Source: Polytrichum commune
Lineage: Eukaryota; Streptophyta; Polytrichopsida; Polytrichales; Polytrichaceae
Reading direction: 5' to 3'
DNA length: 64,000 nt
Assembly (NCBI GenBank): GCA_950295325.1
Contig: OX485807.1
Coordinates: 34,130,440-34,194,439 of the forward strand
The notes under the pieces were generated by a model, which had not been told where the DNA came from, ran no database searches, and saw only the letters and a list, made by a program, of their open reading frames with translations. Of this stretch, positions 1 to 64,000 are shown piece after piece; position 1 is the first letter of the stretch, and each line of letters opens with the position of its first letter. Position numbers and translations under genes: made by a program.

Positions 1-920
1 TTTGAAAGATTGTAAGTATCGATGTAGCATCAATATAAAATCCATTTTATTAGTGTATACTTAATCATTAGTGTTTATTTCATTCATAAGACAGCCTAAT
101 CTGAAACCTAACACATTATAGATAGTGGGGCATGGTGTTTTCTACCCATGCTAAATTCTTGCTTTGATAAATAGGTGTGAATTGTGTAGTGCTTGCATAA
201 ATGATACATAAACAATGATAGCCAATTTGAGAAGGTGTAGGCCAAAGGATTTGGGCATGCTTATGGCCTCTTTAGGAGGCATATGTCTAATTGCATGCTT
301 CTTATGATAACTAGGCTGAGTTATTGTGCATGCATGCTTAAACTAGTCCATGGATGATATATATGAGCCGCAACATATTTTCTTCCCTATGGAGATTACT
401 TTAGATAATGGCCATTTTGTGGACCCAACTACTCATATCCAATGCTCACATAATTGATGCACAATCAATGATAGCCAATTTGAGAAGGCCAAACAACAAT
501 TATGGATACAATGGTGACTTCATCTAGGGGGTGTTAGTTTAATTGCAACTTTCAGGGGAAGTTTACACTATGGACCATGAAGTCGGACTGTGGAAGAGGG
601 CTTTTTTCAATGGTCTGACTTCATGGTCCAACTTCCATGGTCTGACTTCTTAAAAAAACAATTTTGAAAGCCTTGGGCCCCTCATTACGTGTAAACCGAA
701 TGTGGACCAAGAAGAATGACCATGCACCAAAAAATGAATGCGCTGATTTTTTTTAATACATGCCCAAAAAGGGCAATTTCAAAAAAGATTCAAGTTTGAC
801 CATTCTCTTGTCTTCTCTTGGGCTTCATTTTGTCTTCACTTCTTGTTAAATGTGTCAAAGATGTGGCTTGCAAATCTTCTCACAACAATTTTTTTATTTT
901 AAATAAAGCGATTTAATTTG

Positions 921-971
921 TACATGTGACATGTAATTTACATGTGACATGTAATTTACATGTGACATGTA
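921..971. repeat. 18-bp tandem repeat, nearly three copies
   Basis: The unit TACATGTGACATGTAATT is repeated at 921, 939 and 957 (the last partial). Each unit contains an ACATGT palindrome. It lies inside transposon copy 1. The homologous place in copy 2 (about 4975-5010) has only one diverged unit, so the array expanded after the copies separated. Confidence 0.85.
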
Positions 972-985
972 CCTTGTGTTGTCAC

Positions 986-1310
986 TACACTAAAGAGGAT
1001 ATTTAGTGTTTGTTTAATTTTAATGTAGTTACCACTGTACCTTGCTCAACACTAATTTTCAATTCTTTGATAATTAGTGTTAGAAGATTTGCTAGAAGAT
1101 ATGTTGGAATTCTCCTTTTATCATTTTTATTTTTATTTTTTCATATCCGTACTAACACTAAATTAATACATGTAACTTCCACATATCACCTTAGTTGATA
1201 TTTAGTGTTTAAATTTACATTCAATGTTACTTACTTTCATAGGGTTATTGATGTTTAGTGTATGCATTCATATTTAGTGTTTGACACACTAAATATCCTA
1301 TTTAGTGTGG
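986..1310. mobile_element. TACACTAAAT-family MITE nested in TIR copy 1
   Basis: The left end is TACACTAAAGAGGATATTTA and the right end carries the complement, ending in TTTAGTGT. The interior is AT-rich and non-coding. A sister element sits at the homologous position in the inverted copy at 4633-4959, so the insertion predates the spread of the larger transposon, or is now part of it. Confidence 0.75.
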
Positions 1311-1438
1311 TAGAAAACTATGCAAAAAAGAACTGCAATCATTTTCCCATTGCGGTTCTTTTGACCACCATGATCTACAATCGCTGCACAACTACATTTT
1401 TTTCTTTGTCAACTGTAATGTTTAAACTTTTGGGGTGT

Positions 1439-1489
1439 GTAATACACCGTTGGAAAGGTATTTTCAAGACCTTTCCAACGGTATATTAC
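1439..1489. repeat. Perfect-stem hairpin inside TIR copy 1
   Basis: Two arms of about 20 bp (1439-1459 and 1469-1489) are near-perfect reverse complements around TTGGAAAGGT / ACCTTTCCAA, with a 9-bp loop. The same hairpin is preserved in the second transposon copy at 4464-4512. It could be a nested foldback or a small-RNA-like structure; the sequence alone does not decide. Confidence 0.7.
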
Positions 1490-2340
1490 AAGCCCCCCAA
1501 TTTCCAAACATTTCAGTTGGTAGACCAAAAAAAATAAAAATCTGCACTCAAATTCTTGAGTTCTTAGATGACCCACATTGTTTGATGAAACATGTGGGAT
1601 CAAGTTTAAGGAGTAGGGCATGGAAGAAATGGTATATCTCATGGGTTATGATATGATCTAGGCACATAGAGGGTGGACTTGCTTCTCATTACGTCATTAC
1701 GTCATATAGATGTTGACAAGTGAGCCTTGCCTAGTAGGAAGAGTTCTATATAAAGCCCCCAAAAAAATTCATTAATTATTTATTATAACAACATTTCTCT
1801 GCCATGGGCCCCTGCCTTTTCCTACCAGACCACCTCTCTTGCCTCTCTCACTACACAACCCATTGGACCATGTCAGTGCATTTATTAGGCCTTGAAAAAT
1901 GTAATTTGGGGACCTCGACCTCCATGGCCTCTCTGCCATTTTTTCCTTAGTGTAAACTGAAGTGGTCCCGGGACAAGTTCAGCAACCAATCATCGCTCTT
2001 ACAACGCCCTGGTTCAACTTCGTGGTCCATAATGTAAACCGCCCCTCATATGTCAATCAAACCGAGTTCTCGTACATGCATGTCCAAACAAATCCTTGAA
2101 TGCCATACATTAGCCATAACAAAATCTCATCCTGATGGAAATTACATTAGATAATGGCCCTTTAACACACCCATGTACTTATTCAATGATTACATAGGTG
2201 ATGCACAATCAACCATGGCGACTTTGAGAAGGCAAACAACAACATTGAACGCCTCAATGACAATTTTAGGAGGAGAAAATTCGATCGCAACCTTCTTATG
2301 ATAATTAGACCAAGTTCTCATGGATGCATGGGCCCAAACC

Positions 2341-2511
2341 AATGAATGGTTGCAATTGAAATGGTATTATTTGAGAAATAACCGGTTGAAGTCCAAGACT
2401 TTAGGGAGATTACCGATCGTCATAGAGGAACATATGGAATACTACCCAATTCAATAAAGAAAAAACCGAAAAAACATCAACAAGTTACCCCAAGAATCTC
2501 CCCACACACTA
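2341..2511. mobile_element. Short MITE with about 10-bp target duplication (copy A)
   Basis: The segment is bracketed by direct repeats GGCCCAAACC at 2331-2340 and 2512-2521. It is similar in sequence to 5229-5431 and, in reverse complement, to 38393-38571. The right end contains TCTCCCC as in the sister copies; the left end is more diverged. The duplication length (8-10 bp across the copies) fits Mutator-like elements, an inference from TSD size. Confidence 0.75.
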
Positions 2512-2612
2512 GGCCCAAACCAATCCTCAAATGCCCAAACATAAAGCACAACACAATTCTCTTCCCGGTGAAACTACTTTACGTTACATAATAGTCATTG
2601 GATGGACCCAAC

Positions 2613-2954
2613 TACACTAAATAGGTAGATTAGTGTTAGATGAAGATTAGTGTTAGATGCAATAGTTACCTAAAACACTAATTTTCAACCGATATTACAA
2701 TTAGTGTTTGAATAGGGTTTGAACAAATTATACCTTTTACGAGGTTCTCATATTCTTCTTCCTTCAATTCTTCATTCCAAGATTTACAAAATATCATCTA
2801 ACACTAAATGCGCTCATGTAAATATTTGAAGTTACTACTTGGTACAAATAGTGTTAGAGTTGACATTTAGTGTTCTAACACTATAGAGACAATTTACATT
2901 TAGCGTTTTCGTCGACTATTAGTGTTTCCAACACTAATCTACCTATTTAGTGTA
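2613..2954. mobile_element. TACACTAAAT-family MITE, 25-bp perfect TIRs
   Basis: Positions 2613-2637 and 2930-2954 are perfect 25-bp inverted repeats starting TACACTAAATAGGTAGATTA. Comparison with the tandem unit it interrupts suggests insertion at TA with TA duplicated. The interior is AT-rich with several ATTAGTGTT motifs and no ORF. Confidence 0.85.
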
Positions 2955-3654
2955 CCTATTCATCGAATGCTCACATTATTGACACATAATCAACCATGGC
3001 TACTTTAAGAAGGTGTTTGTTTGATTACAACCTTCTTATGGTAGCGAGACCAAGTGTTCTCGTCCATGCATGCATGCATGCCCAAACTACAATAGTCATT
3101 GGATGCCATATGAACCACAATACTATTTCTCTCATTCTTTTTAAATTCCCGATGTAAATTAAGCTAGATTTTTCGCAATCGGTGGAGCCCGTAACTCAAC
3201 CCTTGCATAATTGGCGCACAATCGGTCATAACTTTGCCACTTTGAGAAGGCGAGGCCAACAATTTGGGCAAGCGGGTGGCTTCTTTAGGAGGCGATAAGT
3301 TTGATTGCGGCCTTCTTATGGTAATTAGACCGAGTGTTCATGCATGCCGGCCCCGACCAATCCGTGGACGCCACGTGGCACCATAATATTTTTCCCGTCC
3401 ATGAAATCCGTTACCTAGCACATGGGTGAAGCATAATCAGGCTCCCTTGAAACATGCTTGTGTCGTACTATATTACTTATTCTTGGAGGCAAACCCTAGC
3501 TAGTATTGCATTTTTAAAGTGGATGATTTAATTTACTGCTAATTTTACCGTATGTTTTGAAGTTGAAGAATCGCATTCAAAGCGTGTAGTATTAATTGTA
3601 CCCAATGGAATGCTACAGAAACATTGACATTGGGCGGACTTTGGTGTGTAATGT

Positions 3655-3885
3655 TGTTCCCTCACATTAACTTTCTTCCTTGCATTGGGCCGTGGGAGAT
3701 GATGAATGAGGGTGGCTAGCTAATCGAGGAGCTTTGACATCCATAAGGCAAAGACTTTTCTTTGACTTTCACATCCCATGTTTTTTTCTTTTTTTTTCTT
3801 AATTAATTAGTCCGTTATTGGGTGGATTGACTTGATTTCATGAAGGTTGTTTTAACGGTGAGATTTTTCTTGATATCTTGTCGTG
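3655..3885 (+). repeat. Inverted repeat arm flanking TIR copy 2 (left)
   Basis: The segment from 'tccctcacatta' through 'gaggagctttgaca', a T-rich run and 'gatttttcttgatatcttg' reappears in reverse complement at about 5755-5965. The arms are diverged but colinear over about 200 bp. The left arm abuts the start of transposon copy 2. Confidence 0.6.
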
Positions 3886-4158
3886 GAGTTTACACTATGG
3901 ATCATGAAGTCGGACCAAGGCGTTGTAAGAGCGTTGATTGGCTAGTGAACTTGTCACGGGACCATTTCGTTTTACACTAAGGAAAAAATGGCAGAGGGAC
4001 CATGGAGGTCAAGGTCCCCAAAATTTAATTTTCAAGGCCTAAGAAATGCACTGACATGGTCCAACGGGTTTTGCGGTGAGAGAGGCAAGAGAGGTGGTAT
4101 GGTGGGAGAAGGCAAGGGCCCATGGCAAAGAAATGCCATTTTAACACTTTCTTAATGC

Positions 4159-4192
4159 TTTTTTTTTGGGGGGGGGGGGGAGGGGGGGGGGG
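4159..4192. repeat. Homopolymer tract T9-G13-A-G11
   Basis: A run of T is followed by 13 G, one A and 11 G on the plus strand. It is a strong G-quadruplex candidate and a likely site of length error in sequencing. Transposon copy 1 lacks this tract. Confidence 0.9.
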
Positions 4193-4632
4193 CTTTATAT
4201 ACAACTCTTCCCACTAGGTAAGGCTCAACCAGGCACACTTTTGAGCACCTACATGATGTAATGAATCTTGAGAAGCATGTCCACCCTCTATGTGCCAAGA
4301 TCATATCACAGCCCATGAGACATGACATTTCTTCCATGCCCTACCCCTTTAAACTTGCTCCCACATGTTTCATCAAACAATGTGGGACATCTGAACTTAA
4401 GAATTTGAGTGCAAATTTGTTTTCTTGGTCTACCAACTGAAATGTTTGGAATTTAGGGGCTTCTAATATACCGTTGGAAATATCTTGAAAATACCTTTCC
4501 AACGGTATATTACACGCCCCGAAACTTTTAAAAATTACAGTTGCAAAACGAAAAATAAAAACTTGTAGTTGTTTAGCGACTGTAGATCAGGGTGGTCAAA
4601 AGATTGCGGTTCATTTTCACGCAATTTTCTAC

Positions 4633-4959
4633 TACACTAAGTAGGATATTTAGTGTTTGATACACTAAATACAAACGCATACACTGAATATCAATAACCT
4701 TATGAAAGTAAGTAACATTAAATGTAAACTCAAACACTAAATATTAACTATGGTAATATGTGGAAGTTACATGTTTTGATTTAGTGTTAGTAATTAAGGA
4801 TATGAAAAAAAAAAATAACAATGATAAAAAGAGAATACCAACATATCTTCTAGCAAATCTTCTAATACTAATTTTTAAAGAATTGAAATTTAGTGTTGAG
4901 CAAGGTACAGTGGTAACAACATTAAATATAATCAAACACTAAATATCCTATTTAGTGTA
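4633..4959. mobile_element. TACACTAAAT-family MITE nested in TIR copy 2
   Basis: The ends TACACTAAGTAGGATATTTA and ...ATCCTATTTAGTGTA are inverted repeats. The position is homologous to the 986-1310 element within the other transposon copy. Confidence 0.75.
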
Positions 4960-5228
4960 GTGACAACACAAGGTACATGTCATATGTAAATTACATTGAA
5001 CATGTACAAATTAAATCGCTCATTTTTTATGTACAAATTGTTGTGAGAAGATTTGCAAGCCACATCTTTGACACATTTAACAAGAAGTGAAGCCCAAGAG
5101 AAGACAAGAGAATGGTCAAACTTAGAATTTTTTTTCAAAACTACCCTTTTTGGGCATGTATCAAAAAAATCATCACATTCACTTTTCGGTGCATGGTCAT
5201 TCTTCTTGGTCCACATCCGGTTCACACC

Positions 5229-5431
5229 AATGATCGGGGAGAACCGGCAGTTAGTTACAAATGAACCGGTTGAAGATCAAGACTGCAAGAAAATTACCAA
5301 TCATTTTAGAAGAATTTATAGAATATACCCCGATTTAATAAAGGAAAACCGGAGGATGTCAACCTGTAACCGGTTGGACTTGCATACACTAGGATCTCAA
5401 CCGATTCTGCCCAAAAATCTCCCCGATCACT
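5229..5431. mobile_element. Short MITE with 10-bp target duplication (copy B)
   Basis: The 203-bp element starts AATGATCGGGGAGA and ends with the complement TCTCCCCGATCACT (one mismatch). It is flanked by perfect direct repeats GGTTCACACC at 5219-5228 and 5432-5441. Transposon copy 1 has the empty site near 690, confirming insertion. It is related to 2341-2511 and 38393-38571. Confidence 0.88.
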
Positions 5432-5754
5432 GGTTCACACCTAGTGAGGGGCCCAAGGCTTTCAAAACTAATTTTTTAAGAAGTCGGACCATGGAAGTTG
5501 GACCATGAACTCGGACCATTGAAAAAGGCCCTCTTCCATGGTCTAACTTCATGGTCCATAGTGTAAACCGGCCATTAGAGAAAGGTTGGTCACAAAAATC
5601 TCGTGACAACCATATTTTAACAACCATAGCTCTTCATAACTTAGCTAAAAAGTTAAGGTCATGGGATTTGGAACCCAAGGCCTCATCATGGCCAAGCCCT
5701 CCTTGATGGACTAACCGACCCTTTTCTCTAAGATGCTTTCATGGCAAGATATTG

Positions 5755-32681: not shown

Positions 32682-33211
32682 CTTCACTGCTGTGATGTTG
32701 TCACAAATGTTTGTTATTTGTTGTGCCTATTTAGGTGCGAGATACATTATTCAATTTGTTGAAACTCATGAGACTCTCAACATTGTCACAACTAAATATT
32801 AGCATCTCGTTGTTGGTGAATGCTCGCTTGAGAAAACATGCTAACATTGTTGAATAATGTTCTAAACACTTTATAATGTATTTTGTTAACAAAATGTTGA
32901 TATTAAATTCAATCATTCATGTTTGATTGATTGTATAACGAATACTTCTAACATTGATCATTGCATGAACCAATTTATGGAAGTTGTAAGTTGGACACAA
33001 ACACACCGCACCTCCTCCCTCCTATCATTCAAAACGAGAGTCTCGAGAATGGGTGGTAGCTAAGGTTAAACGAGGACAAGTCAACTCTCATTGATGGACG
33101 GAGAATCTACATGGAATCACACATAGTATGAGTGGATAGCGTTGCTCATGATTGGAAGCTAATAATTTATGGCTTGTTTCAAGGGGACCACAACCGATGA
33201 ATATATAACCA
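32682..33211. other. Non-coding stretch
   Basis: AT-rich DNA between two transposons, with nothing recognised. Confidence 0.4.
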
Positions 33212-33718
33212 AGGGCCACTTCACACACAAGCCAAGAGCCGTGACCATGAAATTGTGAGAGCCCAAAAGCAAAATGTCCAAAGGCCGTCCCAACACACCT
33301 CCAAAATCATGTAGTGTGGTCACGGACCCTCAAGTGTGTAGTGTGAAATCATATGTGATCGGGTCCACAACTGAATCTTATTCCAATGAATTCTATTCAT
33401 GCGGGTCCTCATGCATGATAAAATCAAATAAATCAATGGTTGTGAGCATTCGGAGTGCCATGATCTCCCAGTTGTGTGTTAGGCCTACCTCCAAGAGGTG
33501 GTTTTTCAAAATAGTCCAAGTGACCATGAAACATGATCCATTCGATGCCATGTAGGAATCCATGTAGACTTTACATCCATCTTACATTCACAAACTATGT
33601 TGGTCCCTCAAGCGTAGTGTGAAGCGAACTTGGACTAGCTCCATCTTTTCCACCAATGAGAGTGCTTGAAATGTAGTGGTCACGGGCTCTCTGTCTTGTT
33701 TGTGAAGTGGTCCCAAGC
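33212..33718 (+). mobile_element. GGGCCACTT-family TIR element, best-preserved copy
   Basis: AGGGCCACTTCACACACAAG at 33212 and ...TTGTGAAGTGGTCCC at the right end are inverted repeats. The 507-bp body contains no transposase. It serves as the reference for the copies at 17825, 25968 and 37584. Confidence 0.8.
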
Positions 33719-37583: not shown

Positions 37584-38190
37584 AGGGCCACATCACATAT
37601 GAGACATGAGACTGAGAGCCCGTGACCATGACACTTCAAGCATTCTCATTGGTGGAAAAGGCGGAGCCGGCCCAAGTTCGCTTCAAACTACCCTTGAGGG
37701 ACCAACGGAGTATGTGAATGCAAGATGGATGTAACACCTACATGGATTCTCACATGGTATTGAATGGATCATGTTTCATGGTCACTTGGACTATTTTCAA
37801 AAACCATCTCGTGGAGGTAGGTCTAAGGGCCACTTCACACTCGAGCCAAGAGCGGTGACCATGAAATTGTGAGTGTCCAAAGGCCGTCCCAACACACCTC
37901 CAAAGTCATGTAGTGCGGTCACGGATCCTCAAGTGTAGTGTGAAGTCATTTGTAACCGGGCCCTCAACCAAATGCTATTTCAATGAATTTTTATTCATGC
38001 GGGTCCTCACACATGATAAAATAGAATAAATCAACAATTGTGGACATTCGGAGTGCCATGATCTTCCGGTTTTGTGTTAGGCATACCTCCAAGAGGTGGT
38101 TTGTGAAAATAATCCAAGTGACCATAAGACATGTTCCATTTGATGCCATGTAGGAATCCATGTAGACGTTACATCCATTGCCTCACTTCT
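37584..38190. mobile_element. Two GGGCCACTT-family fragments in head-to-head arrangement
   Basis: 37584-37825 is the reverse complement of the 3' half of the 33212 element. 37826-38190 is the direct copy of its 5' three-quarters. Both meet at 'gaggtaggtctaagggccac', so each keeps one outer terminus and the shared interior appears twice in inverted order. This looks like insertion of one copy into another, or a rearrangement. Confidence 0.7.
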
Positions 38191-45135: not shown

Positions 45136-46720
45136 CTCTCTGTGTTTTTCCGACTAAGATAGCCAAACTCAAGGGTTCAGATGTTTTTGTTGATTGCTCG
45201 TAGTCCAAATCACACTTGGTTTTTTTGACTCAATAACTCAATCACACATTTAGACTAGACATAGTCTTAAAAATTTAAGAGACTCACACCATCGGGATGA
45301 AGCAACTTATCAATTACCTTTGTTTTATGGCACTCATTAATCCTTACACACATGTGGACTAAACATAGTCTAATTTAACATAAAGAAACAAACATTATTG
45401 GTAGCATGCAACCTATAACATGCATGCAAACTTGCCACATGATCCTACATAAAAGGTCCATATATGAAATGCAATAAGAAATGGAATGACTACGTCCTAC
45501 CTATTTATGTGCACTATGAAATATTCAGAAATGGGCAACATATGATTGAAATTCACCAAAGTGAACCCATACTCATTGCGTTTTATAGTAGCCCCTGCTC
45601 CTCTATAATTGGCTCTCACCCAATGGCACAACAACATTATCACACATGTGGTGCCATAGTTCAACTCCACGATCTCTTCAACATATCCTACATATTCAAC
45701 GTCAACGTTGACAGGGTTCTTGTCATTGACATTTGAGCGACACGTGGTTCCAAATACAGCTGCAACTCCCGAATCCATTGTAACTAGATGCGTCTCTGCA
45801 CTCTTCACACGGATGTGATTTCCAGATGCGAACATAGATCGGTATGCTGTAGCTTTCAAGGTAGGAGGTATGCTCAATTGAATTATCTCTTTGTCAATTT
45901 TCTCTCCATCATTGATTGCATCAAAAATGGTAGATAGTATCCACTTTTCATAGGCTGGCAACGGCCTTAACTCCTCTGGATATTGCACCCTTGCTGTGAG
46001 CCCAAAATGGTGCCCACATGTGGTGATTAACTCTTCGAAACCAATTTTAGTTTGACTTTGATGAATTATGATTATTCACAAAACATAAAAAGAGTGAAGT
46101 GTGGTGTGGATTTAAGTTTAGGCTTTAGAATGTGTTGTGTGATTATTTCAAGGTTGAATTCAATAAGAGTATGCCTTGATAATGTGAGTAGGGGGTAAGG
46201 TGAAGCAAGGTGAGCTCCGCGGGTTAAATGCCCACTTTTGGATCCACCTTGGTAGTTTAGGAAGAAGGAAGCTTGGTGGAAGGGGATTAGTCCCTACTTT
46301 GAAGGTGAAGGTTAAGGGATTGTGATTGGAGGTGCTAATCCTCTCACCCTATCTCACCTCTCTCTCCCTCTCTCCCTCTTTACTACTTAAGGTGTTTTCT
46401 CTCTCATTTTCCTCTCTCTCCATCAAGCGCTCTCAAGGGAGCAAGCTCTTAAGAGCTTGAGCCACGTGTGTGGATTAGTAGTTTTTAGTAAAGTTAAGTA
46501 GTTAAGCTCTCTCTCCCTCGATACCTCCCAAGTGAGTGAGCTCTTAGAGCTTGAGATTGCCTAGGAGGATTAGGGGTTAGTTTAGTGAAATTAGTGGGAT
46601 ATGTTCATTCATTGGTTAAGGGACTAGAGGAATATTCGCTTAATCATTAGGGGTTGAGAGTAGTTGTTAGGACTTATTAGACATCTGCCTAAACACTGTT
46701 GGGGAACCGAGTTTATTTAT

Positions 46721-46912
46721 TGCTGGGCAGCTGGACTGCACCGAGTTAGCGCTGCTGGGCAGCTGAGATTGCACAAGTTAGTGCTGCTGGGCAACTGGAC
46801 TGCACCGAGTTAGCGCTGCTGGGTAGCTGAGATTGCACAAGTTAGCGCTGTTGGGCAGCTGAGATTGCACAAATTAGTGTTGCTGGGCAGCTGGACTGCA
46901 CCAAACTTATTG
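46721..46912. repeat. 32-bp minisatellite, six units
   Basis: Units start at 46721, 46753, 46785, 46817, 46849 and 46881, each beginning TGCTGGGCAGCT or a close variant. Two subtypes occur (GGACTGCACCGAGTTAGCGC and GAGATTGCACAAGTTAG) in the order A-B-A-B-B-A, implying past 64-bp dimer expansion. Confidence 0.92.
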
Positions 46913-47159
46913 GCTGATCTCAAGTTAACCAAGGGACTGCCGGTAAATAGGCCGGATTTGGACCGATAGGTTAATTAACTGGTTGGCTAGTTTAGCGAGC
47001 TAAGGTTAAGATTAAGTAGAGGATGCCACTAAACTAGCCATGAGGGTGTTAGACCATTTGTAGATTAAAATAGTTCCTAGACAAGTGTTAAGCTCAATAG
47101 GGTAGGCGATGTGTGGGTGAAAGTCACATGTGATTGCATTTAATATTGACTATGGAGTA

Positions 47160-47504
47160 AAGTGTTTCTTAACACTTGTACACTCTCAGTCAGCATAATT
47201 CACGTGCACAATCAATGGAGAATGCGGAGGATTCTTGCAATGGCAAGAAAAAGGAAGTGAAGATTAAAAGAGTGAGGGGAATGTCCTTAAGGGCATGTGT
47301 GGCCAAAACCGCGGGTTGGACTCTTGAGAAAGCCAACTCTACCACAAGCCAAGAGGCTAACATTAATAAAGCACAATGAGTGAGACAATATGTGAACATG
47401 AAAATTACCTTGCACACGGTTCAATGTTGGAATAGACACATGTGATTCTCAAAGACATCACCCGGACTAGGACGCTAAAGGGGGGTGGATTTGGCCTCAC
47501 ACTT
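47160..47504 (+). repeat. Inverted duplication, left arm, with a conserved open frame
   Basis: This arm matches the reverse complement of 49571-49930, ending at 'ggcctcacac'. It includes an open frame with SLRACVAKTAGWTLEKA that ends in TGA at the same place as in the other arm. Outside the boundaries the two sequences diverge. Confidence 0.8.
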
Positions 47505-47529
47505 GCCCTCCATCCCCTTCTCCTATGAT

Positions 47530-47605
47530 TGTTCTGATACTGCAATCGAGATGCGTCTCGAGCTTTCACGGCATCCTCGTACCTCCTGCGATCAAGAATT
47601 TGAGT
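47530..47605. repeat. Repeat block shared with the 53.5 kb tandem array
   Basis: The block 'ctttcacggcatcctcgtac' followed by 'ctcctgcgatcaagaatttg' occurs here, and in permuted order at 53530-53580 and 53685-53730. The permutation is what a former tandem array would give. Confidence 0.7.
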
Positions 47606-49570
47606 ACAAAAGTCTTGTCAAATGTCTAAATAATATTTTATGCTAAAACTTTCTATAAATTTTAGGGTGTGGGACTATTAAGTGCTCCAAGCAGGACCAT
47701 TATTATTCACTGCATGCACTATAAAATTACAACATGCGATCATCAATGAAGCACAAACCACCTATACCAAACTAAAACGAAAGCCACATAAGTACAGTAG
47801 GCCATTCTCTTACTTCTTCCAAGGTTGTAGTGCGGCCGCATTCTTCAAGACAAATGAGTGTTCCCAATCCCTCAAATTTGTTGGCATATGCCTGTCATGA
47901 CCCTCTCCTTCTGGCATTTCATCGTACATCTTTGGATCCTCACAGTCATCCCACACTCGTGTCTTTGTGCTCTTTGACTCTTTTATATACTATGTACAAA
48001 ATCCCAGCGATTCTTCAAAGGAATACCCCTTAGCCATGCTTCCTTCCGGCCTTGCCTTATTTCGTACAAAATTCTTCAATGTCTTCATGTACCTTTCTAT
48101 AGGGTACATCCATCTGGTGTGCACAAGACCACAAAGATCCAACTCCTCCACTAGGTGATACATCAAATATGTCATTACGTTGAACAAAGAGGGGGGGAAC
48201 TCTTTCTTAAGGATACACAATGTCATTGCAGCCTCCTCTCTTAAGTCCTTCATAGTGGTTGGGTCCAAGGTTTTGGCACATATTCGTTGAAAAACGCGAC
48301 TCAAACGAATTATTGCAAGCCTTGGTCCTTTGGGTAGTATAGTGTGAACACATAAAGGGAGGACCTGTTGCATGAGAATGTGATAATCATGGGCTTTTAA
48401 GCCCTTCAATTTTTGAGTCTCAGGATGTATCCGTTTCTTCAAGGAACTTGAGTATGAACTAGGGACCTTCAAATTTTGTATTATACCCACAAATGTCAAT
48501 CGATCCTCTGGGGACATCACATAGGGTGCAAGAGGTAAATAAAGGTCTCTGTTTCCATTGGGAATGGGCCATAAATTTGAATGTATGTTCATACCTTCCA
48601 TGTCTTTCCTTACAACCACCTTATCTTCTTCACCAAACATAACGTTCATTAAGTGTTCAATGAGATTTTTCTCGCAGTGCATTACGTCCAAAGTGTGGCG
48701 AATGAGTAGGTCCTGTAAAACCAACATAAATGATAAGATTTTGAGCATGGTGTTGCATATGTTACATACTTACATCATTTATACTTTAAAGTAACTTTGG
48801 ACTGCAGCTAGTTTGAAAATAAATAAACATTTTGGATTATACTCAACATTTGACTACAAGTAAGTGGAAAATGTTTTCATAGACTAAGAATGGGTTTATT
48901 TGACTTGTGCTTGCATCAAAAATTGATCATACTAAAAGGAAAAAGCTAGAGACCAACTAACCTGCCAATAAGGGAGTTTCCATAGAGCACACACTCTCTT
49001 CATTTCGTGCTTGTGTACAAGGTCTCTCTTAGCTCTAGCTTTTCCCCCTTTTGTAATCCATTCATCCCGTTCTGTGGCATTTTTTAAAATCTCATATGTA
49101 AGGAGAGCTCGTGCTTTTGTTCTTTTTTCCACCTTGCCATCAAACCAACTTTTCTTTTTTCGATAAGGATGTGAGTGAGCAAGTAGGCGTCTATGGCCTG
49201 TATAGGTCATTTTCCGCATAGGTTTGGAGTACCTTGCAATCATGTTTGGCCCACAATTTGGACAAGCCTTATAACCCTTGGTTACACACCCTGAAACAAG
49301 CCCGAGAGCTGGGAAATCATGTATGGTCCACATCAAAATAGCAGGTAGCAAGAACCGTTGGTTACCATTAATTGCGGCTACATCATATGCCCACACTCCT
49401 TGCCATAGCATGAGAAATTCTTCGAGAAGAGGTGCTAAATAAACATCAAAATTTTCATCCTTCACTGCTTCTTTCCCGGGAATGATAAGAGCCAACATGA
49501 CAAAAAAATCTTTTTGTCACAAGCCACAGAGGCAAATTATAGTTTAGAAGTACCATTGGCCATGTAGAGT

Positions 49571-53429: not shown

Positions 53430-54020
53430 CTTGTGTCGAAACCCTTGTGACAAAACCCTTGTGCCACCTTCTTGGTTTCTTTGTCTTGCTTTGTGCTTTG
53501 TCTTGCTTCTCCATTGCTTCTCTTTGCTTCTCTCCTGCGATCAAGAATTTGAGCTTTCGCAGCATCCTTGTACCTCCTGTAAATCCAGAAACCCTTGTGC
53601 CGAAACCCTTGTGCCACCTTCTTGAAACCTTTGAAGCCGCTTTGTGCTTTGTTTTGCTTCTCCGTTGCTTCTCTTTGCTTTTTTCCTGCGATCAAGAATT
53701 TGAGCTTTCACGGCATCCTCGTACCTCCTGCAATCCAGAAACCCTTGTGCCGCAAGGGTTTAGGGAAGTGTAAACCCTTTTGTTTACCCGCCCTCCCCCC
53801 CCCCCCTTTTTCCCCCCAAGTCCATGTTCATCCATCATTATGTTCCTTAGTTCATGATCATCATTACTAAGGCCCCTAATCATCGCATGGGGTCCAAAAC
53901 CCTTGAAACCTTTGTCTTGCTTTGTGCTTTGTCTTGCTTCTCTTTGCTTTGCCGTTGCTTCTCTTTGTGCTGAAACCCAATCCAGAAACCCTTGTGCCGC
54001 AAGGGTTAAGGGAATCATCA
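53430..54020. repeat. 151-bp tandem repeat rich in AAACCCTTGTGCC
   Basis: Two full units are offset by 151 bp (TGCGATCAAGAATTTGAG at 53536 and 53687), each preceded by 'tttgtgctttg', 'gcttctctttgctt' and followed by 'aaacccttgtgcc'. A shortened third unit lies at 53890-54010. The Cys/Leu/Phe-rich open frames over the region simply translate the repeat. Confidence 0.85.
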
Positions 54021-57607: not shown

Positions 57608-58049
57608 TTTTGGGTTGGTTGCTCAAGGCATAATTGAAGATTGTCTAGGTGATAAGTGCAATGGAGATGAGATTCCAGAGTGATGTTTTGATATCTTGAT
57701 ATATAAAATGTAGGTACAACATATGAAGCTACAGTATCCACAGTCCGGGGGATCCTCCACAAATACGCATGAAGGATGCTAAATATGCACCAATTTTATG
57801 GAGAAAATCAAATTTGAATCTTCTTAGTCAATTTGCCCAATTTTTGTAAAAAAAGTGGGAAATTCATTTTAGAATAGAGAGTCTATATTTTGACTATATA
57901 TCTACTAAAGCAATGTTCATATACATGTTTTCTATTTACAATTATTTAAATTATTCTATGTTTCCGGTTGGATATGTTCTAATATCACATGCATGGTTGA
58001 CGCATATTTATTGGCCAGTGAGAAGTTAAAATGAAGTTGGCTCAATCCC

Positions 58050-59464
58050 AATGCAGCCGGGAAAATTGATGTAGGAATTTTCCTAGCCAATAAATATACT
58101 AGGTTAGTTACAACATCGGGATCCCTTTATCACGATAGGGTAATTTGGGTTCAATTGGAACGAGCAGAAGGGAGTATTGTTGGGCTTGCATGCGTACCTA
58201 TACACAACATTCCCACGGATAGCAGGCACTTATGGCACATCCTTATAGATTTCTTCCCTAAAGATTGTAAATGGATTATCGGAGGTGATTTTAACACGAC
58301 TAAGCGTAACGAAGATAAGTCGCACGATTGCGGGTTGGCTATTAGTGACATAGAAAGGTACACTTGGAAGGAACTACTAAATTCCCTACAAGTAGGTGAT
58401 AAGTATGTATATTAAAGAAGACCTCGATTCTCTTGGGACAACGGACAAAAATGAATAGGCCTAGGACTAGCACAGCTTGATAGTCTCTACACTCCCGTTT
58501 GAAGCAAACTAAATATACATCAAATAAAATACTTCATCCACGGCTGCTCCGTGGAGTCGGATCATTCTCGGTTCACCTTGAGCTACATATAAGTACTGGG
58601 AAAGGTAGGAAAACTCATTTTAAGTGAAATATATCCTACCTTCAAGGCAACATAAAAATAAAATGGAGGCAATTTGAAAAGCCTTACCGGAGGATGCAAC
58701 TTTTTCCTTCAAGCTTAGGAATGTTCTTAGATTCTATAGATAACCAGAAAGTAAAAAAAAAAAAAAAAAAAAATTGAATTAGATATACTAGCTAAAATAG
58801 AAATTGTCACAGCAAATGTTCATAAGGATATTAACAATTTCGAGAAGTAAAGAGAAGTTAATAGGCTTAGGGCAGTTATGGTCAATATTGAAAAAATGAA
58901 AGCAAAAGGGGCCACTATAAGATCACGAGTCAAGTGGCAACAAGTGGGTGATAAGCGCTTAAAATAAATTTTTATGTTAATAAGATCAAAGATTACCCCA
59001 GCCGTGATATTAGAACTCCAAGATCACTGCGGACGGCCAGAGGCAAAACACCGGATTACAATGGCGTCATGGTGAAATTCTTCCAAAAGATGTGTCACAT
59101 CAGAGGTGAGGATCTTCACCTTCTGAATCTCCAAGGCATAAAATAGAGACAATTAAATGAAAGAACGACAAAATGGTTAATTTGTTTGATACCTAGGTAA
59201 GGTCATACTGAAAATTTTAATTATTGGAGGCGTATCACCTTCTTTTCGTTAAATTATAAAATATATCCCAAAAAATTATAAATTAAATTACAACCAATGT
59301 TAAAAGATGTTATTAGCCCGGAACAAACGGCCTTTCTATCATTGAGGTTCATACTAGGCAACGTAGTCCTAATTCAAGAAATATTACATTGGGCTAGGGC
59401 CTCGAAACGACCTTCTATATTTTTTAAGCTTGATAACTCTGAAGCTTACGATAAAGTGTCTTAA
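58050..59464 (+). pseudogene. LINE ORF2 fragment: endonuclease and start of reverse transcriptase
   Basis: One frame from 58050 to about 58590 encodes an APE-type endonuclease remnant: IIGGDFNTTKRNEDKS (GDFN metal-site motif), PRFSWDNG and, after three stops, SDHSRF (the conserved SDH triad end). After about 600 bp of decayed linker, 59219-59464 gives NYWRRITFFSLNYKIYPK, ISPEQTAF and LDNSEAYDKVS. These are the N-terminal reverse-transcriptase blocks, including the first catalytic-Asp region (family form LDFxKAYDxV). ORF2 normally nicks target DNA and primes cDNA synthesis. The copy lacks both ends and is non-functional. It could stem from the same LINE family as the ORF1 at 42980, which cannot be tested from the fragments. 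Confidence 0.8.
58753..58773. repeat. Poly(A) run, 21 bases
   Basis: Uninterrupted A tract inside the decayed linker of the LINE ORF2 fragment. Confidence 0.95.
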
Positions 59465-59897
59465 TATTTTTTTCATCCATGTCATGAACCTTCAATCTTA
59501 ACGCTAGGGACGTAAACCAATTCTTCTACAATAAAATAGCAAAAAAACTAGAATATTGAAGTAATATATAAATCTTATGATTGTATAGAACATAATCTTA
59601 TGTAATTTCGATATAAAGAATTTATTATTCTAATGACAATTTAGAACGGCTCCTTAGATTGGGCGTGATAGCAGTCGTTAAAAGATGTGGGGCCCTGAAT
59701 ACGCCTAGCAGAAAGAAGCCATTTGAAAAGACCTTCGGAGGCGATAAACATGAATTTGCAAAACAATAATATGAGGCAAAAAAAAAATCCGAGGGAGGAT
59801 CGAGTAGCAAACAAATCATTCCCAAAATTTACAAAGACATTAAGGACGTTAAGAACGCGACGAAGAAATGGTTGTACTTCCACAATGATAGGCGTCG

Positions 59898-61060
59898 GTG
59901 GATATACCATCCAACCTTCCAAAATTTTATGGAACAAAAGATGAGGATGCTTCGAGGCATTTGGCGAGGTTTATTAAGAGAGTGATTAGTTTGCTCATCA
60001 CCAACCAAGTATATTGGTTGGTTTGGTTTCTTACTACCTTAGAGGGCGAGGCATATGAGTGGTATAGGCATCATGTTGAGGGTCATTTTAGAGCTTGGGA
60101 TCAATTACAAAGAGAGTTTGTGAATGAGTTTAGACCCGAGGTCGGTCAAAGTATGGCTTTTAGAATTTTAATGAATATGAGGCAATGAAGAGAAGAAGAA
60201 ATCTCCGCTTACATTAGGAGGTTTGATTGGGTGTGTGCAAGGTATGTAGGAACTTTGCTTAATGACGAAACACTCAAACAATTCTTTATGTAAGGATTTG
60301 TTAAAGCGGATACTATTTGAGGTGTTTTAGAAAGGAACCCTCGCACATTGGCAGAGGCTAAGGTGGCCGCTAGGAATATGGAGCATATAGATAGAAATTA
60401 CGAGAGATTATGGAGGAGAGAGGATGAATTGATCCCGCTTCTACCAAGGTCGGGAGTGGAGCCAATTAAGCCACTCAGCCCATCTCCATATGTTTCCATT
60501 GAAGCAGTTTTAGCGGTGAGAAAACTTATACCAATGTTAGCATTGCCAGCCCCTAGAGTGGATCCTTAGAGTCAGGCAGTAGAACAGAGATTAGGTGCTA
60601 CTAAATTAGGATTTCAGGAGGCAATGATGAAGCAATTTTAAAGTCTCACGTATCAAATGTTTTTGTTGATTAGGAATCAACAGCCTGGTCCTCGTCCTCA
60701 GATTTAAGTCGAATAATCATTCGTCGGGATTTTGGTATACTCAGTGTCAACAACATGGCCACACTCGTTAGTTTTGTAGGAATGGACCAAACCGTGATCA
60801 AATAATGAACGGTAATGGTCCTCAACAAAGCCAAAGAAGTTAGAATCATAACCAAAATCAAGGAAACATTAGAGGTCCTCCTCCTCGAGGACAGGCTAAT
60901 CAAAATGCCGAGAAGAAGGAGTTCCACCATATATGTGGAAGGTATCATGTCGTAGGTCAATGTTGGTCGGAGAACCAAGGTCAAGGTTGTAGTATTTGTG
61001 GAGGTCCATATCCGTCTAACCAATGTTGTCATCCTGATAAGATCAATGGTATGCCAAACA
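59898..61060 (+). pseudogene. Ty3/gypsy gag (Retrotrans_gag and zinc knuckles), decayed
   Basis: 59898-60569 in one frame resembles the retrotransposon gag core: LPKFYGTKDEDASRHLARF, GEAYEWYRHH, WDQLQREFVNEFRP, then after a stop ISAYIRRFDWVCARY and LAEAKVAARNME. Stops at 60186 (TGA), 60291 (TAA) and 60318 (TGA) break it. Around 60913-61040 come knuckle-like blocks (ICGRYHVVGQCW and CSICGGPYPSNQC) in which some ligands are replaced (H for C, Y for H), as in plant Tat/Athila-type gag. Gag would form the particle and bind RNA. The start is not an ATG in this frame, and the N-terminus is probably lost. Confidence 0.78.
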
Positions 61061-61369
61061 CTCTAACCAACGCACAACGACCGGCTCAAGATGGCATGAG
61101 AGGATCATGACCAGATAATGAAGGAACTAATGATCTTAAACCATCAAACTTCTATTATAATTATGGGAATGCGAACCTTCCGGTACAAGGAGGTCAAGTG
61201 ACACAACCACCTAGACAGATGGGTCCATCTACATATCAGGATGTCATATTTATGGATGTCTCCACCATTCCGGTAGCTTTAGAGGTGTCTCCTACACAAG
61301 TAACATCTACCGATGGTCAAGGTCAGTGTTCTCCGCATGCTAATTCTATATAATTTGTATGAGTTGAGG

Positions 61370-62604
61370 AGTCTGGAAGGAGAAGTTGTGCATGAAGCTC
61401 CAGCATTAGCAGTTACCACTAGAACGATGAGAGGTAAGATGCCAATAGAAGTGGATGTGGAGGAAGACGAGGAAAATCCCTTGGGAGATGTCCCTTATTT
61501 TTCGGATTTGGAGAATGTAGCTAGGAGGCCACTAAGGCACTAGAAAGGGAAAATGAGATTGTTCATGATAGGGAGAGGTCTAATGTCGTCCATGATCTAG
61601 ATGGTAGTGATGTCGGAGATTGGGAAGGTCCATGCATTCCGGTAGATGAGTTTGATAGTGTTAGAAGGACTAAGGCCGATAGAGTAGATGGATATGATCT
61701 TTGGTCCGATCTTAGCTCACTAAAAGCTGACATCACCTTTGATCAGTTGTTAGAAATCTCACCAATGGCTAGGAAGACTTTGAAGGAAGGAATGCCGGTG
61801 ACTAAAAGGACTCGAAAGCCCAAGACTAGAGTGTCTACATGAGTTCAAATGCAAGGGAGGATTCGAGAGGTTAAGGCGGTGGAGATCGAGGTTACGGTAC
61901 TGGACAAGGTGGTTCCTAATGTATTGGTTGATGGTAGAAGTAGTCTCAACATTTTATCCGAGCACACCATGAAGAAGTTGGGATTGAGTTTGACCGGTCC
62001 ATCACCATTGGTCATCAATATGGCGAACCAAAGTCCGGTGGTTTCAGTGGAAATTATTAAGGATTGTCGACTTAGCACGGGTGGCGATGAGTACGTTGTT
62101 ACCTTTCAAGTGATTAAAATGCATGACAACAAGGATGCATTTCCCATCTTGTTAGTAAGACCTTGGTTAAGAATGGCCAACGCCGTGGTAGATTGGGGAG
62201 GACAAAAACCTTCCATCACTTATGGTCCTGATGATAATAGAGTCAAGGTCTCAATAACATCCTTGAGTGGTTGGGTTAGAGAGGAGATTGATCCTATTTC
62301 GGATGATGAGGAGAATGGTAAGAGTATTGGAAAGTTTGATGATACATTGGTGGGGGTAGTTCAATTGAACGATGAGAAGGCTAAGATGTATTCAAGTTCA
62401 GGTTTTCTAGGTCCTAGCTTTTACAACCAAGAGGATAATGGGGATTTTGCATCTTGGTTGAGACAATATCCGGAGTCCATTAGCGATGTTATGATGATGT
62501 CCCATAGTTGTATTCTCCGAGATGATATGTCTAGTTCGCAGAGGGAGTATTATTTGTCTTTAGAGCCATGTGAGGTTCTCACGGAGGAAGAATGGGTACA
62601 ATGA
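61370..62604 (+). pseudogene. Gypsy aspartic protease segment, tandem copy 1, inactive
   Basis: The upstream part (61370-61543) loses frame at RRPLRH near 61540 and continues in another frame (LERENEIVHDRERSN...YDLWSDLSSLKADITF) to a TGA near 61840, where copy 2 has an open codon. The frame 61849-62604 then gives the retropepsin fold: LVDGRSSLNIL at residues 26-36, KKLGL, CRLSTGG, and FPILLVRPWLRMANAVVDW as the C-terminal flap and hydrophobic region. The active site should read D-x-G; here D28-G29-R30 replaces the essential glycine, so catalysis is unlikely. It is related to 62644-63909 throughout. Confidence 0.82.
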
Positions 62605-62643
62605 TGACTCACTCCATAGATAGGTGATGTTGAAGTTAGTGAT

Positions 62644-63909
62644 GTGAGTTTGGTACATGTAGATGAGACTCAACAGGAGAGGGCTATCTTGGAGGCTTCT
62701 AAGTTAGAGGAACCTTTACATTTTAGGAGAGGGAAGGCCCCATTAGAGGTAGGAGTACAGGGTCAAGAGGAGTATTCTTCGGATGAGGCTCCTAATCTTT
62801 CCGAATTGGATAAGGTAGCTAGAGTAGCTAGAAGGGCCACTAGAGAGTTGGAGAGGGAGAATGTAATTCTTCATGATAGAGAGAGGCCTAATGTCATTCA
62901 TGATTTGGAAGATAGTGAGATGGGAGAATTGGAAGGACCGGAAATTCCTTTGGATGAGTTTGATGGTGTTGGCAATGCCAAAGTGAAGAAGTCGAGTCGC
63001 TACGATTTATGGGCCGATCTTAGCTCACTTAAGGCCTATATTACCTTCGGACAATTGTTGGAGATTTCACCCGTAGTTAGGAAGACTCTCAAGGAAGGAA
63101 TGTCAGTGACTAGGAGAACTAGGAAGGTTAAGCCTAGGATGGTGGCTATAGTTCAAATGCAAGGAGGAATACGAGATATCAAACCAATTGAAATTGAGGT
63201 TTTGGTGGTCGACAAGATGATTCTTAATGTGCTAGTGGATGGAGGTAGCGGACTAAACATCTTGCCGGAGCATACCATGAAGAGGTTGGGACTTAGTCTT
63301 ACGGGTTCATCACCTTTCATCATCAATATGACGAATCAAAGTCCGGCCGTGCCTTTGGGGATGATTAAGGATTGTAGGATTAGCACTGGAGGGGAAAAAT
63401 ATGTGGTCACCTTTCATATCATCAAAATGCATTCTAATAAGGATGCATTTCTCATCTTGTTAGATAGGCCATTGTTGAGAATGGCGGATGCCATAGTGGA
63501 TTGGGTAGGAGTCAAGCCATCCATTACTTATGGTCCGGAGGACAATAGGGTCAAAGTTCCCATAGGGTCGCTAGGTGGTTGGATTAGACAAGAGATTGTT
63601 TCATCTTCGGAAGATGAACGTGATGCCAAGGAGGATGGCAATAATGATGAGGCATTGATAGGAGTAGTTCATTCGGGTGGTCTAGGTCATAGTTTCTATA
63701 ATTATGGGGATGATAGGGAGTATGCCCAATGGTTGAGAGATTATCAGGAGTTCGAATTCGATGTTATGACCACGTCCCATCATGCATGTTTGAGGGATGA
63801 CATTGTTAGTTCAAGGAACGAGAAATATTCCTTGTTAGAACCATATGAGGTGCTCACCGAGGAAGAGTGGATTTTAGGGGAATTAACACTTTGGGTTGAT
63901 AGTATGTAA
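62644..63909 (+). CDS. Gypsy aspartic protease segment, tandem copy 2, open
   Basis: An uninterrupted frame of 421 codons ends TAA before a third repeat begins. Residues 1-160 are acidic and linker-like, with RELERENVILHDRERPN and YDLWADLSSLKAYITF as in copy 1. Retropepsin follows: LVDGGSGLNIL with D199-G200-G201-S202 (intact D-x-G), then RLGLSLTG, CRISTGG, and LILLDRPLLRMADAIVDW. The C-terminal 100 residues are acidic and end PYEVLTEEEW. In gypsy polyproteins protease cleaves Gag-Pol; here no reverse transcriptase follows within the window. The first codon in the frame is GTG and the true N-terminus would be fused to upstream Gag, so the segment is probably not translated alone. Confidence 0.82.
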   Translation: MSLVHVDETQQERAILEASKLEEPLHFRRGKAPLEVGVQGQEEYSSDEAPNLSELDKVARVARRATRELERENVILHDRERPNVIHDLEDSEMGELEGPEIPLDEFDGVGNAKVKKSSRYDLWADLSSLKAYITFGQLLEISPVVRKTLKEGMSVTRRTRKVKPRMVAIVQMQGGIRDIKPIEIEVLVVDKMILNVLVDGGSGLNILPEHTMKRLGLSLTGSSPFIINMTNQSPAVPLGMIKDCRISTGGEKYVVTFHIIKMHSNKDAFLILLDRPLLRMADAIVDWVGVKPSITYGPEDNRVKVPIGSLGGWIRQEIVSSSEDERDAKEDGNNDEALIGVVHSGGLGHSFYNYGDDREYAQWLRDYQEFEFDVMTTSHHACLRDDIVSSRNEKYSLLEPYEVLTEEEWILGELTLWVDSM

Positions 63910-64000
63910 GAGAGTGACGTAAGTTTAGTACATGTAGATAGGACTCAAGATTATGATGCTATCATAGAAATGGAGAAGTTGGAGGAGCCTTTACACTTCG

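What the first reader, a model, noticed from the sequence alone, without database searches (positions are those of the whole stretch)
61330..64000. Tandemly repeated retropepsin segment inside a gypsy element
The protease-bearing segment (about 1.3 kb) occurs at least two and a half times head to tail, whereas gypsy elements normally have one protease between gag and reverse transcriptase. Copy 2 keeps an open 421-codon frame with an intact D-G-G-S site, while copy 1 has D-G-R-S plus frame breaks. One copy seems kept open as another decays. Tandem amplification within the element, before or after insertion, could be a feature of this lineage or local satellite-like expansion. Seen: repeats, motifs and breaks. 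Inferred: significance.
Basis: partly seen in the sequence, partly recalled or inferred. Interest (0 to 1): 0.7.

Follow-up and report, generated by a model that had tools for sequence, protein, structure and literature searches.

The report
Double protease in dead retrotransposon
A decayed jumping element carries two diverged copies of its protease segment side by side; both seem to have been kept working for a long time before the element died, so the pair is not a recent local repeat expansion, but whether a living element family uses two proteases cannot be told from here.

Summary
The repeat is real. Two protease-bearing units lie head to tail at 61429-62723 and 62727-63998, 71.8% identical (900 of 1253 aligned bases), behind a decayed gag (Pfam Retrotrans_gag). 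The divergence is coding: dN/dS between units is 0.21 (bootstrap 0.14-0.30), 0.12 in the protease core, dS about 1.1-1.4; shifted frames of the core give 1.0 and 3.5. So both units evolved under purifying selection for most of their separate history, which speaks against recent satellite-like expansion and against one copy decaying from the start. Core spacing is in frame. Two origins remain: fusion of proteases from two already diverged elements (slightly preferred, because near-identical direct repeats are lost often in retroviral reverse transcription), or an old in-frame duplication kept by an active lineage. No relatives were reachable (no genome held; collections of prokaryotes, viruses, plasmids), so this is open. 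A plant survey removed elements with duplicate domains as likely mispredictions (PMC6317226). Interest modest.

The parts
59898..61428 (+). Decayed gag: Retrotrans_gag match at the start, cysteine-rich stretch near 60920-61030, at least seven stops and two frame changes along the frames followed by eye
   Evidence: PF03732 E 1.7e-5, 25.4 bits against cut-off 24.1, for 59898-60185; frames and stops read
61429..62723 (+). Unit 1: linker, retropepsin-like domain (D-G-R-S) and acidic tail; one frame change and four stops
   Evidence: homology limits; Asp_protease_2 E 0.055, below its cut-off
61849..62601 (+). Open frame holding the unit 1 protease core and tail (251 codons)
   Evidence: 156 of 252 aligned positions identical to unit 2 (62%)
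62602..62726 (+). Junction of units 1 and 2 (3' end of unit 1), in the same frame as the end of unit 2, with three stops
   Evidence: 75 of 101 bases identical to the window end; 0 of 2000 shuffles as good for 62641-62726 against 63916-64000
62727..63998 (+). Unit 2: linker, retropepsin-like domain (D-G-G-S) and acidic tail; part of a 421-codon open frame (62644-63906), stop at 63907
   Evidence: gag-asp_proteas E 0.042 and Asp_protease_2 E 0.052, both below their cut-offs
63916..64000 (+). Window end: counterpart of 62641-62726, the 3' end of unit 2; not proof of a third copy

Best explanation
This is the gag-protease part of a dead Ty3/gypsy-type LTR retrotransposon that holds two complete protease units head to tail. 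Shown: two units, core spacing that is a multiple of three, divergence that bears the mark of purifying selection, and many lesions. Inferred: the lesions came after that selected phase; the units diverged first, as the single proteases of two related elements, and were then joined by unequal recombination (template switch between co-packaged RNAs, or ectopic DNA recombination), giving gag-PR(A)-PR(B). The copy seen here has since decayed. If the joined form was ever active, its polyprotein could have run on either protease, each working as an ordinary homodimer.
For: dN/dS 0.21 over 370 codon pairs (bootstrap 0.14-0.30), 0.12 in the 130-codon core (0.05-0.21; 17 of 1000 replicates had infinite dS and counted as 0), 0.15 in the 97-codon linker, 0.40 in the 111-codon tail: linker and core both constrained. 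If a fraction f of the divergence had been neutral, f could be at most about 0.2-0.3 (my arithmetic). Identity is even along the unit, 0.68-0.78 in windows of 100 aligned bases and 0.64 in the last 53, so no recent conversion. Direct repeats are deleted often in retroviral reverse transcription, but below 82% similarity the deletion frequency falls to under 1% (PMC3187697, passages seen): a fresh identical 1.3 kb repeat would be unstable, a fused diverged pair would not. Unit 2 has fewer lesions than gag plus unit 1 (p 0.03, post hoc), as if of another age.
Against: No single-protease relative of either unit was found, because no plant collection could be searched. The in-frame core and 3' spacing (1308 and 1275, multiples of 3) would come about by chance in one random join of three. 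The lesion contrast is weak. The direct-repeat data come from animal retroviruses and vectors, not from plant elements.
Confidence: 0.48

Rival explanations
1. Old in-frame tandem duplication inside an active lineage: gag-PR1-PR2-pol elements transposed for a long time with both proteases needed, for example with divided tasks or as a covalently linked pair, before this copy died.
For: In-frame core spacing and matching unit ends; strong constraint in both units. A large plant survey removed every element with multiple copies of one domain as likely mispredicted (PMC6317226, section 6 read), so such lineages could have gone unnoticed.
Against: The same survey's authors looked further into such elements and judged them mispredicted in every case. 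A fresh identical 1.3 kb direct repeat should be lost often in reverse transcription (PMC3187697). Neither unit shows relaxation strong enough to raise the pairwise dN/dS. No relative was seen. Literature listings (capped lists, titles and abstract starts) showed no paper on it.
Confidence: 0.38
2. Local tandem or satellite-like expansion after insertion, in a dead element.
For: Head-to-tail arrangement; the unit 2 homology reaches the window end, so further copies are not excluded.
Against: Differences are concentrated at third codon positions (91, 58, 175 for positions 1, 2, 3; p about 2e-15) and dN/dS is far below 1; neutral copies would give about 1.
Confidence: 0.04
3. Assembly error: two different related elements misjoined at the junction.
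For: Raw reads are not available; nothing here excludes a misjoin at 62640-62730.
Against: The junction matches the end of unit 2 in length and frame. The longest run of identical aligned bases between the units is 18 (gaps ignored), short for a misjoin through the repeat.
Confidence: 0.1

Closest known systems
Plant Ty3/gypsy LTR retrotransposons (order GAG-PROT-RT-RH-INT; PMC6317226, section 6 read, other passages)
   Same: gag of the Retrotrans_gag family followed by a D-x-G retropepsin-like segment on the same strand
   Different: two complete protease units instead of one; the rest of pol lies outside the window
Clan AA peptidases: dimeric LTR-element proteases and two-domain pepsins (PMC2642776, passages seen)
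   Same: single-domain retropepsin-like units; that paper says pepsins are normally assumed to come from duplication of such a dimeric form
   Different: here each unit brings a long linker and tail (about 424-432 codons per unit), and one has a changed active site; nothing shows a fused two-lobe enzyme
Tandem LTR-retrotransposon structures (PMC11899658, only title and start of abstract seen, in the listing)
   Same: retroelement sequence arranged in tandem
   Different: there, judging by the title, whole elements; here an internal coding segment without any LTR between the units

Membership tests
Ty3/gypsy LTR retrotransposon | Retrotransposon gag domain | tested here: met
   PF03732 just above its cut-off (25.4 against 24.1 bits) at 59898-60185
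Ty3/gypsy LTR retrotransposon | RT-RH-INT order after the protease | not testable with these tools
   window ends at 64000; no genome held
Ty3/gypsy LTR retrotransposon | LTRs and primer-binding site | tested here: inconclusive
   no good match to five recalled tRNA motifs at starts 58001-60000 (best 3 mismatches of 12); 3' LTR outside the window
Ty3/gypsy LTR retrotransposon | one protease between gag and RT | tested here: not met
   two protease-bearing units; RT not in the window
Retropepsin-like aspartic protease (clan AA) | D-x-G active-site motif, unit 2 | tested here: met
   D-G-G-S
Retropepsin-like aspartic protease (clan AA) | D-x-G active-site motif, unit 1 | tested here: not met
   D-G-R-S, a changed site
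Retropepsin-like aspartic protease (clan AA) | profile match | tested here: inconclusive
   both units match aspartic protease models independently but below the curated cut-offs (E 0.042-0.055). With a two-row profile, 7 PDB sequences at E up to 10: 6 named protease, most of HIV or SIV, best E 0.23, matched in residues 41-97 of 99, not where the active site lies (recalled), and one phosphatase. Unit 2 alone: one esterase, E 2.4
Retropepsin-like aspartic protease (clan AA) | fold | tested here: inconclusive
   AlphaFold models had mean pLDDT 33 and 44; not used
Satellite or recent tandem expansion | copies nearly identical or diverging neutrally | tested here: not met
   71.8% identity, dN/dS 0.21

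The most novel reading that the evidence does not exclude
A lineage of plant Ty3/gypsy elements whose active members carry two proteases in frame between gag and pol, both under selection, perhaps acting as a heterodimeric or covalently linked pair, as in the duplication that is thought to have given rise to pepsin.
Probability: 0.25. Interest if true: 0.6.

Novelty: new variant of a known kind. Interest (0 to 1): 0.32.

Why it matters
The plant survey read here treated elements with duplicate domains as prediction errors. In this window the two proteases carry the mark of long selection, so some such cases may be real. If a living family with two proteases exists, it would be a natural experiment on how a dimeric protease becomes a linked pair. 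If not, it is a clear case of unequal recombination between diverged elements.

Tried and rejected
Relatives: viral contigs with unit 2 (1 pattern match, 0 confirmed), with the two-unit core alignment in viral contigs (52 pattern matches, 0 confirmed) and genome contigs (50 pattern matches, 0 confirmed), a degenerate active-site pattern in both (0), plasmids by tblastn (none). These hold prokaryotic and viral records, so the misses say little. NCBIfam and PHROGs gave nothing for units 1 and 2. PDB by sequence: nothing significant. Structure prediction failed, so no fold search was made. No tRNA or Rfam match in the window. No further copy in the window of unit 1 pieces, unit 2 or the first 96 codons of gag (tblastn at E 1; the only extra match is the window end, 63919-63999).

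Papers: for a doubled protease, listings (20 of 3,307; 0; 10 of 3,867; 12 of 44; 0; 0; 5 of 5) showed none by title and abstract start. Searches (9 of 9; 12 of 13) were searches on repeat deletion and on retropepsin duplication. Opened: PMC6317226 (section 6 and passages), PMC3187697, PMC2642776 and PMC9916801 (passages only; the last concerns another matter). None was read whole.

Rejected: nested insertion of one element into another (no LTR or foreign sequence seen between the units; the junction matches the end of unit 2). Rejected: post-insertion expansion (dN/dS). What the dN/dS leaves out: local alignments kept 97 of 99 codons of the linker piece, 241 of 253 of the core-and-tail piece and 32 of 48 of the first piece; stop codons, gaps and the codon at the frame change of unit 1 near 61541 were not counted. 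This favours conserved stretches somewhat. dS above 1 is near saturation, so its size is rough.

Full report
What is there. The last 4 kb of the window hold a gag-protease fragment on the + strand. The gag stretch begins at about 59898 (PF03732, E 1.7e-5) and has at least seven stops and two frame changes by 61428, along frames that I followed by eye. Two protease-bearing units follow: 61429-62723 and 62727-63998. They align over their whole length, 900 of 1253 aligned bases identical, with local alignment score 958.5 against a best of 46 in 200 shuffles. Each holds a linker, a retropepsin-like core and an acidic tail. Core and tail are identical at 156 of 252 aligned protein positions. The window is eukaryotic and probably from a land plant: this is inference, from the transposase pieces of CACTA type on the other strand (Pfam, the type name recalled) and from the look of the element. 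No genome is held for it.

Boundaries and copy number. By blastn, homology with unit 2 starts in unit 1 at 61429. Upstream, 61345-61428 is not convincingly like the matching 62641-62726: 66 of 2000 shuffles score as well at the nucleotide level and 635 of 2000 at the protein level; against the window end the numbers are 785 and 1116. For 62641-62726 against 63916-64000 they are 0 and 0. The 66 of 2000 is borderline, and the local alignment ran weakly on to 61354, so a much decayed homology is not excluded. Taken at face value the unit runs from the R-G-K linker to ...K-L-E-E-P-L-H-F. The window ends at the end of unit 2. Two copies are shown; more are possible.

Age and selection. Over 370 codon pairs dN/dS is 0.213 (1000 bootstraps, 0.14-0.30), dS 1.15. 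The 130-codon core gives 0.124 (0.05-0.21, 17 of 1000 replicates with infinite dS), the 97-codon linker 0.149, the 111-codon tail 0.395 and the 32-codon start 0.399. Differences by codon position are 91, 58 and 175 (chi-square p 2e-15). Reading the core in the two wrong frames gives 1.04 and 3.5. So the units diverged as working coding sequence. If one had been neutral since they separated, with branches of equal length, the value should be near 0.5 or higher (arithmetic). The spacing of 1308 at the core and 1275 at the 3' end is a multiple of three; at the 5' end it is 1298, which is not, because of the frame change inside unit 1. The stops at the junction (62602, 62605, 62617) and at 63907 are read as later decay, like the other damage; this is inference.

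Decay. Lesions are 9 in 59898-61428, 5 in unit 1 and 1 in unit 2 (counted by me; one-sided binomial p 0.029 for unit 2 against the rest, 0.11 against unit 1 alone). The test was chosen after seeing the data. Unit 2 also differs at positions that are usually conserved (recalled), so an open frame is not proof of an active enzyme.

Origin. Two histories fit. (a) The units diverged in separate single-protease elements and were fused by unequal recombination. (b) One element duplicated the unit long ago and its lineage kept both. Against (b), direct repeats are deleted often in retroviral reverse transcription, more so with length, while similarity below 82% reduces this to under 1% (PMC3187697, passages seen); a new identical repeat of 1.3 kb would have to survive until it had diverged. 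For (b), the core spacing is in frame and the unit is constrained in both copies. I lean slightly to (a), 0.48 against 0.38. A comparison with relatives would settle it, but the searches of the collections at hand found none, as expected since they hold prokaryotes, viruses and plasmids.

Known context. Plant Ty3/gypsy elements have the order GAG-PROT-RT-RH-INT, and the survey of PMC6317226 looked further into elements with multiple copies of one domain type and removed them in every case as likely mispredicted (section 6 read). This can be read both ways: as a place where such elements were missed, or as expert judgement that they are errors. LTR-element proteases dimerise and pepsins are normally assumed to stem from a duplication of such a form (PMC2642776, passages). 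I found no paper on a doubled protease in an LTR element in the listings, which cover open-access papers only and were capped lists.

Limits. The protease assignment rests on the motif, on sub-threshold Pfam matches in both units and on position after gag; the structure models were too poor to use. The superfamily rests on gag alone, a match just above its cut-off.

Noticed in passing
45500-49498: Parts of a transposon, of CACTA type as I recall these families, on the - strand: Transposase_21 (E 2.3e-35), DUF4218 (E 5.2e-31) and a DUF4216 match below its cut-off (E 0.00024).
   Followed up: partly
561-5568: Long inverted repeats facing each other: 689-2039 against 5227-3888 (82% over 1397 columns) and 561-697 against 5568-5432 (90%), like the arms of a foldback or long-TIR element.
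   Followed up: no
46721-46902: Tandem array with 32-, 64- and 96-base periods, about 5.7 copies of the 32-base unit.
   Followed up: no
53438-53964: 151-base repeat, 2.1 copies (53438-53752), with shorter pieces of the same motifs nearby.
   Followed up: no
33211-33696 and 37609-38178: Related sequence at two places (85% over 371 columns), with an inverted piece at the second place.
   Followed up: no
58155-59480: Pieces that read by eye like a LINE endonuclease and reverse transcriptase just upstream of gag (name recalled); no Pfam match for the two pieces tested.
   Followed up: partly
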